From contig JAJYTC010000028.1 of assembly GCA_021793275.1 (NCBI GenBank), positions 1 through 35,276 on the forward strand: DNA of 35,276 bases, given 5' to 3'. The stretch comes from Deltaproteobacteria bacterium (GTDB lineage Bacteria > Desulfobacterota > Syntrophobacteria > Syntrophobacterales > Syntrophobacteraceae). The translations under genes and the position numbers were made by a program. Positions 274-22,937 of the stretch are shown piece by piece. The notes beneath the pieces are model-generated. The model saw only the letters and a program-made list of their open reading frames with translations, was not told the origin of the DNA and searched no databases. Positions within the stretch are counted from its first letter, which is position 1. The number at the start of each line of letters is the position of its first letter.

Positions 274-1380
274 TCAATCGGCAAGAAAGTCAAAGTCCCC
301 CCGGTATGAGCATAGTGCCGGGTACTCCGGCACAATGTCGAGAGAGCCAGAACCTGATATCTTTATCTGTATGTCACCTTGGCATGGCACGGAAAAGGCA
401 TCTGCATTCCGATCAGGGACGCTGTTTATAAAGCGCAGCAAACCCGGTTCAATTGCATCGCTGAATTCAAGTACGTCCGCGACACTGCCCCTGCACCCTC
501 CACTCAGGCAGGTGCAATATGGTCCAATATTCAATGCCTTCAAGCGTGCCAAAACCTCAGGGTGTGGATGAGACAGGCCGTTAGCAGAAATGAGAGCAAA
601 CTTGGTTCCGTCCGCCTTGAAGAGGTGCTTGATTACGGCATCGGCACAGCCCTCGTTTGAACCATGGTGAGGTAACTTCACAGCCTCTCCGTTTAGATCG
701 GATCCACCGCGTTCGGTGAAATTACGCATCCTGTATCTCCAATTTGAATTCATTACATCTCCCCCCAAGACAATGGACCGCCCCATATACTTAATAAAAA
801 AAGCAAGGCTGATATCGTTTTCACCTTCGCTCGCTACGACATCCAATGTTCCTTTCTCGAGCATTTGGAAGTAGGTACCTTTAACCCTCGAGTGTGGCTG
901 AATGACAGCAATTTCGATTCCATTAAACCCGGCGGGCGTAATAGAGCTAAGGTGACCTTTAGGCTCGCTCCAATTGTCAAGCCCGATATACTTTTTTGCA
1001 AAATGAAGAATTTTAATTAGCTCTATCAGATTCCCGCGAATGGTCTTACTATCGGTCTCCTCAAGCAACCTCTGGTACAGTTTGACCGAGTCCTTAATCC
1101 TTCGCTGTCTATCGAGCGGAAAGGTATAAAATCCGTCTATCTTACCCCGATATGCTTCAAGTATTTTAAGAAAGCCTCTGTAATGATCAGCGTGCGGGTG
1201 GGTAATGGCAGCAAAACTGAGCCTCTCAGCTTCAAGGGATTGTAGCTTAGTTAGGGCGGGAGGATCGCCTTCGGTTACCTGGTTTGAATCAATAACCGCA
1301 AAATACCGATTGGAGGAGATGTCATACTCCAATATTATTGAATCACCATGTGCAACCTGTAGAATATGGATTATAAGCAC
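274..1380 (-). CDS. ComEC/Rec2-like metallo-beta-lactamase-fold hydrolase
   Basis: The 368-residue protein carries the MBL-fold metal motif T60-H-P-H-A-D-H66, a GGD segment in its middle, and the HHGS and SHPHPE motifs typical of the ComEC/Rec2-like MBL subfamily (stand-alone hydrolases resembling the C-terminal domain of the DNA-uptake protein ComEC). No signal peptide or membrane segment is seen, so it should be cytoplasmic. Family members cleave phosphodiester or ester bonds; the substrate here cannot be read from sequence. It starts with GTG 9 bp after the stop of the 169-residue gene and is the last gene of a three-gene operon. The C-terminal ~90 residues contain extra cysteines (CTCLSGGC) and do not match the core fold. 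Base composition is visibly more AT-rich than the metabolic genes to the right, suggesting transfer. Fold assignment is firm, role unknown. Confidence 0.85.
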   Translation of the reverse strand: MLIIHILQVAHGDSIILEYDISSNRYFAVIDSNQVTEGDPPALTKLQSLEAERLSFAAITHPHADHYRGFLKILEAYRGKIDGFYTFPLDRQRRIKDSVKLYQRLLEETDSKTIRGNLIELIKILHFAKKYIGLDNWSEPKGHLSSITPAGFNGIEIAVIQPHSRVKGTYFQMLEKGTLDVVASEGENDISLAFFIKYMGRSIVLGGDVMNSNWRYRMRNFTERGGSDLNGEAVKLPHHGSNEGCADAVIKHLFKADGTKFALISANGLSHPHPEVLARLKALNIGPYCTCLSGGCRGSVADVLEFSDAIEPGLLRFINSVPDRNADAFSVPCQGDIQIKISGSGSLDIVPEYPALCSYRGDFDFLAD

Positions 1381-1389
1381 CGGCCCACT

Positions 1390-1899
1390 CTATAAATCCT
1401 CTATGATAGAGTCTATCTCCTTATTCTCTGCTACCATTTTTTCAGAGAGTTCCATCTGCCGGGCGGAAACGAGCGGGCGGCGTATCCCATCTGAATCCAT
1501 TGTATAGCTTAAACTTATAGGCGATCCACAGTGTATATCTTTCGGAAAAAGACTCTCATGAAGTGTAATCTGCGTCTTTCTATTTTGCTCAACATCTAAA
1601 TATATTTCGCACAGGACATGATTTTTATGAACTCTCAACACAGCACCATCAACCTTCGTCTTCCTGTCTTTACCTGTCAGCATTTGCTCAGGCTTGACCG
1701 AAGAAATGGTGTCACTACGTAAAATTATGTCACCACTTCGACTCGCTTCGCTGGTCACAAACCGATATGGCAGTGCTTGATACTTTACGGACTGGCCTTC
1801 GTAGTCATCGTCAATTTGTCTTGTTCCTGTGGCTTTGTCCAGGTCAGATCTGTAAATAACGTGCTGCAGATCAGTTCTTAGCAGATTTTCGGTCGGCAT
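1390..1899 (-). CDS. Unrecognised protein of the MBL operon
   Basis: A 169-residue soluble protein that I do not recognise. The start is supported by a strong GGAGG 6 bp upstream of the ATG. It overlaps the end of the upstream 260-residue gene by 29 nt and is followed 9 bp later by the MBL hydrolase gene, so the three are almost certainly co-translated. The middle (about residues 60-140) looks beta-rich, with alternating hydrophobic positions, and the C-terminus is an acidic helix. It has no signal peptide, no cysteine cluster and no catalytic motif I can name. From position in the operon it could be an adaptor or substrate-specificity partner of the hydrolase; that is inference only. Confidence 0.7.
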   Translation of the reverse strand: MPTENLLRTDLQHVIYRSDLDKATGTRQIDDDYEGQSVKYQALPYRFVTSEASRSGDIILRSDTISSVKPEQMLTGKDRKTKVDGAVLRVHKNHVLCEIYLDVEQNRKTQITLHESLFPKDIHCGSPISLSYTMDSDGIRRPLVSARQMELSEKMVAENKEIDSIIEDL

Positions 1900-2653
1900 C
1901 TACTTCCTCCATTCGTTGAAAAAGCTCATTTTCATAGTACCTTATGAACTCATTTGCCTTTATTAGGATAGGACGATAAAGATTTGAGATGGTTCTTCTT
2001 GCGATGGAAAAATTATATTCATGTAAATCCAGATCAAATATCATATCAAAATCACATGCTTCCATTATCTTATCGGCAATTAAATTAAAATATTTCCGGG
2101 CCTCCGCTGATCTATATGGTCCAGACCGACAACTGTATCTGACACCGTCCTGGTCGGCTCCTTCCCAGACCGCGGCCACATCAGAAATCCTGCCAAGTTT
2201 ACCTTCGATTGACCTAATGTGGTTCGGTCTAAAAAATGAGTTGAAAGCGGCAAGGGCATCCTCAAAGCAGGTCCCAAGCTTGCCGAAGTAAAAAAGCCGG
2301 AAACCGGATCGAGAGATGGTATCGATACTGAACTCACCGCACAGTCTATCCGCCAGCTTGACTAGAGGAGCCAAAGGATCACTCTCCAATAGGTCGGGCA
2401 GCTCGATACCTTTAGCTATTTCAAAGGAACCATCGATGCTGGTTGGAGAGGCGTTGAATAGCACGCCACAGTCGCTGTCTGCAGTCTGAGTATGGACGGT
2501 CAGAATTCGAGGTGCCCTCTCACTGAGCTCTTTAATGGGAGCTCTGTCGAGGTTTAGCGTTTCCCAGAAAGTCTGGAAAATTCTACCCGGCGCTTCCATC
2601 ATCCTGAAGTTTACCGTAAAATCAAGTCGAAAGATGACCTTGCAGACTGGCAT
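1871..2653 (-). CDS. Unrecognised 260-residue protein, first gene of the MBL operon
   Basis: First gene of the operon. The ATG has a GAGG about 7 bp upstream. The N-terminus (VIFRLDFTVNF) and the later LHEYNF segment give a beta-strand-rich pattern vaguely like the TIGR04255 group of conserved hypothetical proteins, but I cannot confirm membership. The C-terminal third is helical and charged. No membrane segment or enzyme motif is visible. The 29-nt overlap with the next gene indicates translational coupling. AT-rich codon choice matches the other two genes of this operon and differs from flanking genes, so the trio probably arrived together. Confidence 0.65.
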   Translation of the reverse strand: MPVCKVIFRLDFTVNFRMMEAPGRIFQTFWETLNLDRAPIKELSERAPRILTVHTQTADSDCGVLFNASPTSIDGSFEIAKGIELPDLLESDPLAPLVKLADRLCGEFSIDTISRSGFRLFYFGKLGTCFEDALAAFNSFFRPNHIRSIEGKLGRISDVAAVWEGADQDGVRYSCRSGPYRSAEARKYFNLIADKIMEACDFDMIFDLDLHEYNFSIARRTISNLYRPILIKANEFIRYYENELFQRMEEVDADRKSAKN

Positions 2654-2689
2654 CGGACTACCTCATAAATAAGACCGACCGAGCTATTG

Positions 2690-2717
2690 ACAATACCTGA
2701 GATATCAATTTTTTCAA
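2690..2717 (-). promoter_or_regulatory. Candidate sigma-70-type promoter of the MBL operon
   Basis: On the minus strand TTGAAA (2717-2712) is followed after 16 bp by TATTGT (2695-2690), some 37 bp upstream of the first ATG of the operon. The -35 matches 5 of 6 and the -10 matches 4 of 6 consensus positions. AT-rich sequence makes chance matches likely, so this is only a candidate. Confidence 0.3.
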
Positions 2718-2860
2718 GTAAAAATCCCCCGAGGTCGATGAGAACAATATGATCGGAATGCTGGAAAATTTTGTTGAATCCTTTCGGGCTTTGCCCTTCG
2801 CATCGGCTGAACGTTCACGCCGCGATTTTAGCACTCGGAAATCAAGGTTTGCAAAACGGC

Positions 2861-2912
2861 AATCAGAAGCGGCAACCAGGAGCGGAAACCAGGAGCGGAA
2901 ATCAGAAGCGGC
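2861..2912 (+). repeat. 13-bp tandem repeat, four copies
   Basis: Four head-to-tail 13-mers occupy exactly 52 bp: AATCAGAAGCGGC, AACCAGGAGCGGA, AACCAGGAGCGGA, AATCAGAAGCGGC. The outer two copies are identical to each other, as are the inner two. They lie in the divergent intergenic region between the MBL operon and the coiled-coil gene. The period is not a multiple of three, which argues against a coding role. Confidence 0.9.
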
Positions 2913-3011
2913 AAAAGCGAAAACGCAACGGGAAGCGCAATTAAAATTCCTCCGGCTAATTTCTAGCCGCCGCCATCCTAGATGGGGTCCTGCTTTCATG
3001 AACGCTTTATT

Positions 3012-3040
3012 TTGCTTCGGCGCCGTTTTTCCGCTATAGT
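3012..3040 (+). promoter_or_regulatory. Candidate promoter of the coiled-coil gene
   Basis: TTGCTT (3012-3017), a 17-bp spacer, then TATAGT (3035-3040), about 90 bp upstream of the ATG at 3130. The -10 is 5 of 6, the -35 only 3 of 6, and the spacing is ideal. Confidence 0.4.
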
Positions 3041-3129
3041 AAAGGGCTTTAGCTCCTCCTGCATGAAGATTTGGGCGACTCGCCCGGAACATAGCAGGTT
3101 TTGATCCCCAACCAATGAGGAAGACGACT

Positions 3130-3207
3130 ATGGCCGCCAAAGCAGAGGATACGCCCGACATCACCGCCTCCAGCACCAAAAAAGAAATATTGGATGCGTA
3201 TGTATAA
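3130..3207 (+). pseudogene. Frameshifted 5' segment of the coiled-coil gene
   Basis: The ATG at 3130 has AGGA about 10 bp upstream and opens a 25-codon frame ending at TAA 3205-3207. The sequence GTATGTAT at 3198-3205 is a perfect 4-bp tandem duplication. Removing one GTAT joins this frame directly to the long frame that follows, giving ...KKEILDAY|NNLLKTLQ..., a natural helical continuation. I infer that 3130 is the true ancestral start and that the gene carries a 4-bp insertion, either a real mutation, a phase-variation event or an assembly error. Confidence 0.7.
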
Positions 3208-21090: not shown

Positions 21091-22374
21091 TTATTGATAT
21101 TTGCGATTGTGATTTTTGCATCCGATCGGTCGAGCTTCAGGGTGAAGTCGCACGGTATTTTGCCTATGGGAATGTTTATCGTCGGGCCATCCGAGGAAAA
21201 ATGCGCTGGCGAGATCCATGCGGCTTAAGTGTGTTCGTGGAAGCAGAATTTCTTCGATTCTCGGCTGCTCTCCCGTCAGTATCCAGCATGCGAGATGAGC
21301 CAGTTGGTATGAGATTAGCGGTGGCACGGCATCCCCCATGTGACGGTACATATTGGAAAGCGCTGCTCCATTAAAAACAAAGGAATCAGGAAAGCCTTGC
21401 AGTGCGGCGATTTCTCTCACAGTACACAAGCGGTCCTGTTCGGGGTGAGCATAGCGCCCGTTTCCAACATGGGAACATTCCCGCTTTATCGTCTGCGCCG
21501 GTTTGTCCCAAGCCAATCGCCCATATACGTCCGGGTATGATCCGAACCGCTTGCCGGCAACGATTCGCTTCATCGAATCCGTCAAAAGGTGCTTTGCGTC
21601 GGACCGCTTCAAAAGGTCCATCCATGACCCTCCGTCTTTGGGAATAGCAGCAATTCTTTGCCGCACCGACTCGGATGAAAAATCAGGATAAGCTCTGGAA
21701 CCGTCGGCATCGGGGGAGATTGTGCTGAAAGCCCTTCTGACGGTCAAGGCTTCGTCCTTCAGGCGCCATCCATCCCACAGACTATCCAAAGTATGCAGAG
21801 GAAGATGCTGCCTTGCTGCAATTACGATCGCCCGTTCCCTGATCTGTGGCAGGCCGAATCGCGAAAGCATGTACGTCCTGCCAAAAACATTATATCCATG
21901 GCTCTCCAGATGTTTTCTGAACCACTCGTAGTGATCCTTGAAGTTTCCACGAATCAGTTCTCGCGCATTTTCCATCACCACAACGTCCACAGACAGCGCG
22001 ACGGCAAACTCTGCCGAGCGGCGCACCAGACTATTGCGGTGGTCGTCTCTGACATGATTTTCCGGAACCGCCCGACTGAACCCCGTGCAGGGGGGGCAGG
22101 TCAAAAGGACGGAAACTGAAACTTCATCAGTGAGCGAGAGGGCTGACTTCAGCTGCTTCGGCGCAATTGCCGACAAATCGAGTGAGACAGGATTTATGCC
22201 TATATTCCGTGCATACGTCCTGTTACATTGGAGCTTACCGGCGCCCGTACTGGGTTTGCCCTGTTCGGCGTCAGCTGCGGCGACGATTCTGAAGGCCGGG
22301 TGCATATGAAACCCGTAGCTCATACCACCGGCGCCTGAGAAAAGATCGACTACTGCAAACTCCTTCGCTTGCAT
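21091..22374 (-). CDS. DNA (cytosine-5) methyltransferase
   Basis: The 427-residue enzyme shows the ordered C5-methylase motifs: I DLFSGAGGMSYGF, IV with catalytic C96 in TCPPCTGFSR, VI MENARELI, VIII QIRERAIVIA, and X MGDAVPPLISYQLA. The target recognition region lies at about residues 240-330. It modifies cytosines in a specific sequence that cannot be read from the protein. The ATG overlaps the vsr stop as TAATG, so both are co-translated, as for Dcm/Vsr of enterobacteria. No restriction endonuclease gene is near, so it may be a solitary methyltransferase. Confidence 0.93.
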   Translation of the reverse strand: MQAKEFAVVDLFSGAGGMSYGFHMHPAFRIVAAADAEQGKPSTGAGKLQCNRTYARNIGINPVSLDLSAIAPKQLKSALSLTDEVSVSVLLTCPPCTGFSRAVPENHVRDDHRNSLVRRSAEFAVALSVDVVVMENARELIRGNFKDHYEWFRKHLESHGYNVFGRTYMLSRFGLPQIRERAIVIAARQHLPLHTLDSLWDGWRLKDEALTVRRAFSTISPDADGSRAYPDFSSESVRQRIAAIPKDGGSWMDLLKRSDAKHLLTDSMKRIVAGKRFGSYPDVYGRLAWDKPAQTIKRECSHVGNGRYAHPEQDRLCTVREIAALQGFPDSFVFNGAALSNMYRHMGDAVPPLISYQLAHLACWILTGEQPRIEEILLPRTHLSRMDLASAFFLGWPDDKHSHRQNTVRLHPEARPIGCKNHNRKYQ

Positions 22375-22937
22375 TATTCGTCGCCTCTCTCCCCTTTCGG
22401 CAAACTCGTAAGGGGCTTTTTGTAAGAGCTGATGCGATATTTAACTTTCTTTTCCGCCACTGAAAGCAACAGGCCACGATCCATCATGGGCTCATCGTAG
22501 TGAAGCGGCTGACTGGAGGCGGATCCGTGCTTTAACCAATGCGAAACTTTCCGGATAGTTTCAATCGTTTCCTTGATCAACTCACATTCCCATACCACCA
22601 TCACGCGCCAGCCGGCCGCTTCCAGTTCTTCTTGAATGCGCCGATCCCGTTCCACGTTTTCGGCGAATTTGCGCGTCCAGAAGTCAACGTTACTCTTCGG
22701 GGTAGTCGCGTCTTTACATCCAGGATGACGGTGCCAATAGCATCCATGAACAAACACAACAGAGCGATATTTCGGAAACACAAGGTCCGGCTGCCCCGGC
22801 AAGTGCCTGTTTCTGAGCCTGAACCTTATTCCCAACCTGTGCAAACCGGATCGGAGTATCCATTCGGGCTTCGTATCTCCGCTGCGTACCCGGGACATGG
22901 CAATGGACCGCTGATCCGGCGTAAAAATGTCCGTCAT
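22374..22937 (-). CDS. vsr: Very-short-patch-repair endonuclease Vsr
   Basis: The protein has the Vsr signatures FTPDQRSIAMSRVRSGDTKPE, PGQPDLVFPKYRSVVFVHGCYWHRHPGC and the following WxxKFxxNxxRDRR helix. Vsr nicks at T:G mismatches created by deamination of 5-methylcytosine, protecting the genome from its partner methylase. At 187 residues it is about 30-40 longer than usual: the tail (after ~150) is not family sequence and ends in KKPLTSLPKGERGDE, where the DNA contains a CCCCTT/AAGGGG inverted repeat. The extra tail could come from read-through into a repeat. It is first in the operon with the methylase. Confidence 0.92.
   Translation of the reverse strand: MTDIFTPDQRSIAMSRVRSGDTKPEWILRSGLHRLGIRFRLRNRHLPGQPDLVFPKYRSVVFVHGCYWHRHPGCKDATTPKSNVDFWTRKFAENVERDRRIQEELEAAGWRVMVVWECELIKETIETIRKVSHWLKHGSASSQPLHYDEPMMDRGLLLSVAEKKVKYRISSYKKPLTSLPKGERGDE

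What the first reader, a model, noticed from the sequence alone, without database searches (positions are those of the whole stretch)
274..2653. Three-gene MBL-fold operon, candidate for an undescribed conflict or processing system
A ComEC-like MBL hydrolase (THPHADH, HHGS and SHPHPE motifs) is encoded with two proteins that I cannot name, overlapping or separated by 9 bp. The block is visibly AT-richer than its neighbours. Known knowledge: ComEC-like MBL proteins recur in defence and conflict islands. Inference: the two partners supply substrate recognition and control, and the trio moves as a unit.
Basis: partly seen in the sequence, partly recalled or inferred. Interest (0 to 1): 0.62.

Follow-up and report, generated by a model that had tools for sequence, protein, structure and literature searches.

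The report
Rare mobile three-gene MBL-nuclease cassette
A rare trio of neighbouring genes, one encoding a probable DNA-cutting enzyme and two encoding helper proteins with no name of their own, is kept together in distantly related bacteria and in a phage, usually beside antiviral genes, so it is a good but untested candidate for a new bacterial antivirus system.

Summary
Three minus-strand genes, A (260 aa), B (169 aa) and an MBL (368 aa), form a tight operon. Its GC is 0.46 against 0.546 ± 0.017 elsewhere in the window, and the operon is absent from ten congeners. The same ordered trio, with gaps of 16 bp or less, occurs in five other bacterial genomes (Desulfobacterota, alpha-, beta- and gammaproteobacteria). 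Its B–MBL end also occurs in a P2-like phage, exactly in the gpA–gpQ defence hotspot. In every host the block is AT-richer than its flanks. Neighbours include type III and type I restriction systems, a TOTE primase-helicase, a resolvase, and glmS. The MBL keeps all ComEC-type catalytic motifs; its best library match is the Lamassu effector LmuA. It adds a ~45-residue insertion and a four-cysteine C-terminal domain. B is an OB-like barrel related to DUF3006, the small protein I found encoded directly after many ComEC-like MBLs. A has a confident predicted two-repeat alpha/beta (TBP-like) fold and no family. No ATPase, protease or STAND partner is present, so it is not Lamassu, AVAST or canu. 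Best reading: a mobile defence cassette with a DNase effector and A/B as sensor and adaptor. Defence activity is inferred, not shown.

The parts
1871..2653 (-). Gene A, 260 aa, first gene of the operon; predicted two-repeat alpha/beta (TBP-like) fold plus long C-terminal helix; no known family
   Evidence: ORF; homologues in 5 other bacterial genomes; AF2 pLDDT 84, pTM 0.80; weak VIA Z 7-8 to TBP/guanidino kinase/AdoMetDC; no Pfam, NCBIfam, PADLOC, PHROG or PDB sequence hit
1390..1899 (-). Gene B, 169 aa: disordered N-terminus, OB-like barrel, acidic C-terminal helix; DUF3006-like partner of the MBL
   Evidence: ORF; homologues in all loci; AF2; profile match to DUF3006
1462..1656 (-). OB-like five-stranded barrel of B (aa 82-146), the part that matches DUF3006
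   Evidence: AF2 strands 82-146; VIA Z 7.4 to aIF5A OB, 6.2 to CspA; hhalign 32.4 vs shuffled 12.1 +/- 2.3 and reversed 12.3
1396..1443 (-). Conserved acidic/hydrophobic C-terminal helix of B (aa 153-168)
   Evidence: AF2 helix 153-168; alignment
274..1380 (-). Gene MBL, 368 aa, ComEC-like metallo-beta-lactamase-fold hydrolase without membrane part, predicted cytosolic DNase; last gene of the operon
1183..1200 (-). Metal motif HPHADH (aa 61-66); H61, D65 and H66 invariant
961..1107 (-). Approximate ~45-residue insertion between HxxxDH and the GGD motif (aa ~92-140), characteristic of the trio MBLs
   Evidence: HPxxDH-to-HHG spacing 174-178 in six trio MBLs vs median 131 in 84 other MBLs, of which one is >=165; gap against ComEC 9ic4
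757..765 (-). Metal motif GGD (aa 206-208), Asp invariant
661..672 (-). PHHG motif (aa 237-240), invariant
565..573 (-). SHP motif (aa 270-272), His and Pro invariant
310..516 (-). C-terminal domain with four invariant cysteines (C289, C296, C333, C357), probable structural zinc site (inference)
   Evidence: all six full-length trio MBLs keep them; a spacing-pattern search hit one of 84 non-trio MBLs, which on reading is cysteine-rich elsewhere
2654..3116 (.). Non-coding/variable stretch between the operon and the first gene shared with congeners; holds a 13-nt tandem repeat (2857-2914)
   Evidence: homology with congeners starts only at 3117-3160; repeat

Best explanation
It is a horizontally mobile three-gene defence (or inter-element conflict) cassette. 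SHOWN: A, B and MBL are a conserved, tightly spaced operon that appears intact in unrelated hosts, and at least its B-MBL end lies in the defence hotspot of a P2-like phage. The MBL keeps every ComEC-type catalytic motif and starts directly at the fold, with no membrane segment before it. B is a DUF3006-like OB barrel. INFERRED: the MBL is a cytosolic DNase effector held inactive at rest. Its conserved ~45-residue insertion and its four-Cys C-terminal domain are the likely docking or gating surfaces. B docks on the MBL through its acidic C-terminal helix and delivers it to nucleic acid through the OB barrel. A, whose invariant residues include R9, D11, E78, R115, R119, D158, D207, D209 and E212 and no Ser, Cys or His, is the sensor or inhibitor that responds to a phage-derived ligand and releases the nuclease, which degrades invader (and possibly host) DNA. 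Because no protease, ATPase or STAND protein is encoded, activation would be by binding or release rather than by the proteolytic cut used by HamM, Avs1a and CanC.
For: Conserved order and spacing: six bacterial trios with gaps from -29 to +16 bp, and B plus MBL on phage contig L085. G083 was found with A alone, and MBL and B then proved adjacent, an independent test of linkage. P2-like phage contig: the MBL lies next to portal gpQ and terminase gpP, with gpO, a P2-family capsid, and gpA at the far end; PMC9122126 defines the defence hotspot as the region between gpA and gpQ. Other contexts: type III RM and a DruE-like fragment; type I RM and a serine resolvase; TOTE primase-helicase; 460 bp downstream of glmS. 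AT-rich in all hosts; absent from ten congeners, variable site. MBL best matches: LmuA 5e-19, RTasMBL 2e-11, Avs1a 1.5e-8, against ComEC/Rec2 2e-5. Related MBLs are DNases in defence (PMC12799240). B is DUF3006-like, and DUF3006 directly follows an MBL in 11 other loci.
Against: No activity has been shown for any member. Only seven independent locations are known, and defence enrichment was not tested against a random-gene control. The window's own neighbourhood has no defence gene closer than the Dcm/Vsr pair at 21-23 kb, and Lichenibacterium shows none on a 5.8-kb contig. A has no functional homologue. Gene A itself was not seen on the phage contigs, which end before it. The trio MBL has one conserved insertion rather than the two disordered gating loops described for HamM and CanC.
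Confidence: 0.5

Rival explanations
1. Addiction (toxin-antitoxin-like) or element-stabilising module: the MBL is a toxic nuclease and the upstream A and B neutralise it; it is kept on mobile elements for its own maintenance rather than for defence.
For: Putative effector is last after smaller partners; mobile contexts; a Gp49/HI1420-type toxin-antitoxin pair sits beside it on the phage; defence and TA loci co-cluster (general knowledge).
Against: Two partners with folded domains, one of them DUF3006-like, are more than a simple antitoxin needs; the DUF3006-MBL pair also exists without A and with the barrel gene after the MBL.
Confidence: 0.2
2. The MBL is not a DNase but a phosphodiesterase or processing enzyme (RNA, cyclic nucleotide or another phosphoester), with B as an RNA- or ligand-binding subunit; the cassette acts in signalling or RNA processing.
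For: The MBL fold covers many phosphoesterases; B's OB barrel resembles cold-shock and IF5A domains that bind RNA; NCBIfam also gives weak matches to RNase Z and GloB.
Against: The best matches are all to defence nucleases and ComEC; the related HamM cuts DNA and not RNA.
Confidence: 0.15
3. Degenerate or divergent relative of Lamassu, AVAST or the nuclease-protease systems that has lost, or keeps elsewhere, its ATPase or protease.
For: MBL scores best to LmuA and above noise to Avs1a and RTasMBL.
Against: No SMC, STAND, protease or RT gene was seen flanking the trio in the loci read, and the same trio recurs without them; A has no invariant Ser, Cys or His, so it is not an obvious protease.
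Confidence: 0.08
4. Housekeeping DNA-uptake or DNA-processing operon.
For: MBL shares the ComEC nuclease fold.
Against: Patchy, absent from ten congeners and nearly all sampled relatives; atypical composition in every host; phage-borne copy.
Confidence: 0.05

Closest known systems
Gated MBL pro-nucleases of Hachiman (HamM), AVAST type 1 (Avs1a) and canu (CanC); PMC12799240
   Same: ComEC-like MBL nuclease of similar size as effector in a small mobile operon; insertion relative to ComEC
   Different: No trypsin-like protease or caspase partner; one conserved insertion instead of two disordered gating loops; four-Cys C-terminal domain; A and B match no family model of these systems in PADLOC, NCBIfam or Pfam
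Lamassu with MBL effector (PADLOC LmuA, PDLC03854)
   Same: Best-scoring library family for the MBL (5e-19)
   Different: No LmuB (SMC) or LmuC; A and B have no PADLOC hit
DUF3006 (PF11213) protein paired with a ComEC-like MBL
   Same: B's barrel aligns to DUF3006 (hhalign 32.4 vs 12 for controls); both are encoded next to an MBL
   Different: B carries a ~78-residue disordered N-terminus, lies upstream of the MBL and misses the Pfam threshold; the one DUF3006-linked MBL read here in full (L102) begins with a hydrophobic segment, the trio MBL does not; gene A is absent there
TIGR04255 'sporadically distributed' family
   Same: Similar length and apparent order of strands and helices; also found in defence islands (BREX-like, type III RM)
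   Different: No HMM hit; profile score 25.6 is matched by a reversed-profile control (24.7), so homology is not shown

Membership tests
ComEC-like MBL hydrolases | HxxxDH, GD, PHHG and SHP metal/phosphate motifs in ComEC order | tested here: met
   Invariant in all full-length trio MBLs; ComEC MBL domain alignment
ComEC/Rec2 competence protein | Equivalog TIGR00361 score >=190 bits with competence membrane domain | tested here: not met
   22.9 bits, MBL part only; protein begins at the MBL fold
AVAST type 1 (Avs1a) | NF041809 equivalog cutoff 420 bits | tested here: not met
   42.9 bits
AVAST type 1 (Avs1a) | Adjacent Avs1b/STAND NTPase genes | tested here: not met
   No such gene among the neighbours read and scanned in the loci
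Lamassu | LmuB SMC-like ATPase in the operon | tested here: not met
   Operon is three genes in every complete locus; A and B have no PADLOC or Pfam hit
Gated nuclease-protease systems (PMC12799240) | Protease encoded with the nuclease | tested here: not met
   No protease family hit in A or B; no invariant Ser/Cys/His in A
Gated nuclease-protease systems (PMC12799240) | Disordered insertions gating the MBL active site | tested here: inconclusive
   One conserved ~45-aa insertion; MBL structure not predicted
DUF3006 (PF11213) | Score above Pfam gathering threshold (32.3 bits) | tested here: not met
   No PF11213 hit for any B
DUF3006 (PF11213) | Homology of the barrel domain by profile comparison | tested here: met
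   B profile finds a DUF3006 protein at E 4.4e-4 among 17,942 frames; hhalign 32.4 vs shuffled max 19.4, reversed 12.3
DUF3006 (PF11213) | Gene adjacent to a ComEC-like MBL | tested here: met
   All B genes adjoin the MBL; 12 of 13 DUF3006 frames follow an MBL by -52 to +157 bp (two of the 12 are the same contig)
TIGR04255 | HMM score above 30 bits or clear profile homology | tested here: not met
   No HMM hit; hhalign 25.6 vs reversed control 24.7
TATA-binding-protein-like fold | Clear structural match to A | tested here: inconclusive
   Z 7-8, 4.7-5 A rmsd over ~165 residues, tied with kinases and AdoMetDC

The most novel reading that the evidence does not exclude
A protease- and ATPase-independent immune system in which a ComEC-like DNase is controlled by a DUF3006-like OB adaptor and a previously unnamed TBP-like-fold sensor. 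It would give a function to a DUF3006-type partner and would extend MBL-nuclease immunity to direct, non-proteolytic activation.
Probability: 0.35. Interest if true: 0.7.

Novelty: new variant of a known kind. Interest (0 to 1): 0.5.

Why it matters
MBL nucleases have recently been shown to be shared effectors of several immune systems, switched on by a partner protease (PMC12799240). A compact operon with the same class of nuclease but no protease would show a second way of controlling it. It also gives a testable role to DUF3006-type proteins, which sit next to many ComEC-like MBLs and for which the literature library held no paper.

Tried and rejected
(1) A as TIGR04255: gathered 30 members; the profile match looked placed correctly but a reversed profile scored nearly the same, so it was rejected as evidence. 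(2) A by fold: no match stands clear in PDB; the viral-library hits have low TM-scores. (3) Phage and plasmid records: no relative of A or of full-length trio MBLs; viral-contig scans with A found none. (4) Wider genome sampling in the class, order or family of known hosts found only the hosts themselves. (5) Chthoniobacter locus L019, whose MBL has the same insertion length: its upstream 257-aa protein looks B-like by eye, but the score (16.6) is within shuffled controls (max 18.4). (6) Promoter/terminator scan near chance. (7) No tRNA in the window. (8) B full model is poor (pLDDT 64.5) outside the barrel. (9) Literature searches for such a trio returned only the nuclease-protease paper as relevant.

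Full report
OBSERVATION. The window is one whole contig (C53) of a 4.65-Mb, 278-contig assembly. On its minus strand, in transcription order, lie A (1871-2653, 260 aa), B (1390-1899, 169 aa) and an MBL-fold gene (274-1380, 368 aa, GTG start). A and B overlap by 29 bp and B and MBL are 9 bp apart. GC of the block is 0.460; the rest of the window in 2380-bp pieces is 0.546 (sd 0.017, minimum 0.510). GC3 is 0.43-0.48 against 0.60-0.66 in five neighbouring genes. The trio ends 273 bp from the contig end, so what follows it downstream is not visible here.

IS IT A UNIT? A search with A alone found one other genome in the phylum sample, G083. Fetching its surroundings showed B and MBL immediately after A, in the same order and with almost the same lengths (260, 165, 368 aa). 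A genome-collection scan with the two MBLs then gave four more: Woeseiaceae, Lichenibacterium, Haliea and Sideroxydans. All have A and B directly upstream of the MBL (Sideroxydans MBL cut by its contig end). Two near-identical viral contigs carry the MBL (38% identical over its whole length), with B's last 97 residues just upstream on one of them; both contigs end before A would be reached. Gaps between genes are -29 to +16 bp everywhere. MBL identity to the window is 36-46%, A 25-29%, B 13-24%. No A was found without the MBL. The family is rare: class-, order- and family-level samples around known hosts returned only the hosts.

MOBILITY AND CONTEXT. None of ten congener genomes has A. Three congeners share the neighbouring coiled-coil gene, and homology with them stops at 3117-3160, just outside the block. 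In every host the trio is AT-richer than its flank, by 5 to 20 points (window). Contexts: G083, type III restriction-modification genes and a DruE-like fragment; Haliea, serine resolvase upstream and a type I system downstream; Sideroxydans, TOTE primase-helicase and an AbiEii-like nucleotidyltransferase; Woeseiaceae, 460 bp downstream of glmS, the place that Tn7 uses (from general knowledge; no transposase was looked for systematically); P2-like phage, beside portal gpQ and terminase gpP, with gpO and a P2-family capsid, and gpA at the contig's other end. Rousset et al. define the P2 defence hotspot as the region between gpA and gpQ (PMC9122126). Lichenibacterium shows nothing on its short contig. 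In the window the nearest defence-type genes are a Dcm-like methylase and Vsr at 21-23 kb. No random-gene control was made for the defence enrichment.

THE MBL. All ComEC-type motifs are invariant: HxxxDH, GGD (Asp), PHHG and HP. Best library matches are defence families: LmuA 4.9e-19, RTasMBL 2e-11, Avs1a 1.5e-8. ComEC/Rec2 follows at 2e-5, far below its cutoff. The protein starts at the first strand, so it should be cytosolic (inference). Two features set the trio MBLs apart. First, there are 174-178 residues between HPxxDH and HHG against a median of 131 in 84 other MBLs, only one of which is as long. Second, a C-terminal domain carries four invariant cysteines. A spacing-pattern search found a match in only one of those 84, and on reading, that protein (L054) is cysteine-rich outside the MBL domain and has no such domain. 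Tuck et al. showed that related MBLs (HamM, Avs1a, CanC) are pro-nucleases opened by a partner protease, and HamM is DNA-specific (PMC12799240).

B. No library names it. AlphaFold2 gives a disordered first ~78 residues, then a confident five-stranded OB-like barrel and a C-terminal helix; Z 7.4 to aIF5A and 6.2 to CspA are ordinary for small barrels. Scanning 17,942 translated frames from all fetched loci with the B profile, the first hit outside the trio (E 4.4e-4) was a small protein encoded 11 bp after another ComEC-like MBL. Pfam identifies it as DUF3006 (6e-24); two of the next three weak hits are also DUF3006 proteins. Profile-profile comparison scores 32.4, against a shuffled mean of 12.1 (sd 2.3, max 19.4) and 12.3 for the reversed profile. 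DUF3006 directly follows an MBL in 11 loci. So B is a DUF3006-like partner, and MBL-barrel pairing is wider than the trio.

A. No sequence relative outside the trio was found. The AF2 model is good (pLDDT 84, pTM 0.80): two alpha/beta repeats and a long C-terminal helix. The best structural matches (double-domain kinases, TBP, AdoMetDC; Z 7-8) are tied and weak. Invariant residues are mainly charged and glycine; no Ser, Cys or His is invariant, which argues against a protease. A TIGR04255 relationship was tested and not supported, because a reversed-profile control scored almost equally.

MECHANISM. Shown: a mobile operon, a catalytically complete nuclease-type MBL, a DUF3006-like OB partner, no protease or ATPase. 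Inferred: the MBL is the effector DNase; B recruits or positions it through barrel and acidic helix; A senses or inhibits; activation is by binding or release. Defence is preferred over addiction because of the P2 hotspot, the restriction and TOTE neighbours and the close kin of the nuclease, but both fit.

NOVELTY. MBL-nuclease immune operons are a known kind. This one differs in both partners and in lacking the activating protease, so it is graded a new variant, with a moderate chance that it is a distinct immune system.

Noticed in passing
L102 10025-10234; L070, L088, L105, L056, L103, L107, L049, L033, L101, L100: DUF3006 genes directly follow a ComEC-like MBL gene (gap -52 to +157 bp) in 11 loci from Firmicute-type MAGs and viral contigs: a conserved pair, with no paper mentioning DUF3006 in the library.
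   Followed up: partly
window 21091-22937: Dcm-like cytosine methylase (also matches Druantia DruM models) with a Vsr endonuclease, overlapping by one base.
   Followed up: no
L117 5684-6463 (G033) and L116 5512-6270 (G026): TIGR04255 genes in defence islands: with a 126-aa gene and a PIN-like gene between Mod and Res of a type III RM system, and among genes that look like BREX PglZ and BrxL (by eye); the small partner gene recurs beside both.
   Followed up: partly
L019 3952-8026: Chthoniobacter locus: STAS-containing 505-aa protein, 257-aa protein with a possibly B-like C-terminus, MBL with the same long insertion as the trio, and a PIN gene; possibly a related MBL system.
   Followed up: partly
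window 2857-2914: Four head-to-tail copies of a 13-nt unit in the gap between the trio and the coiled-coil gene.
   Followed up: no
L004 12005-16511: A 556-aa protein with no Pfam or PADLOC hit lies directly beside the type III Res and Mod genes in G083.
   Followed up: no
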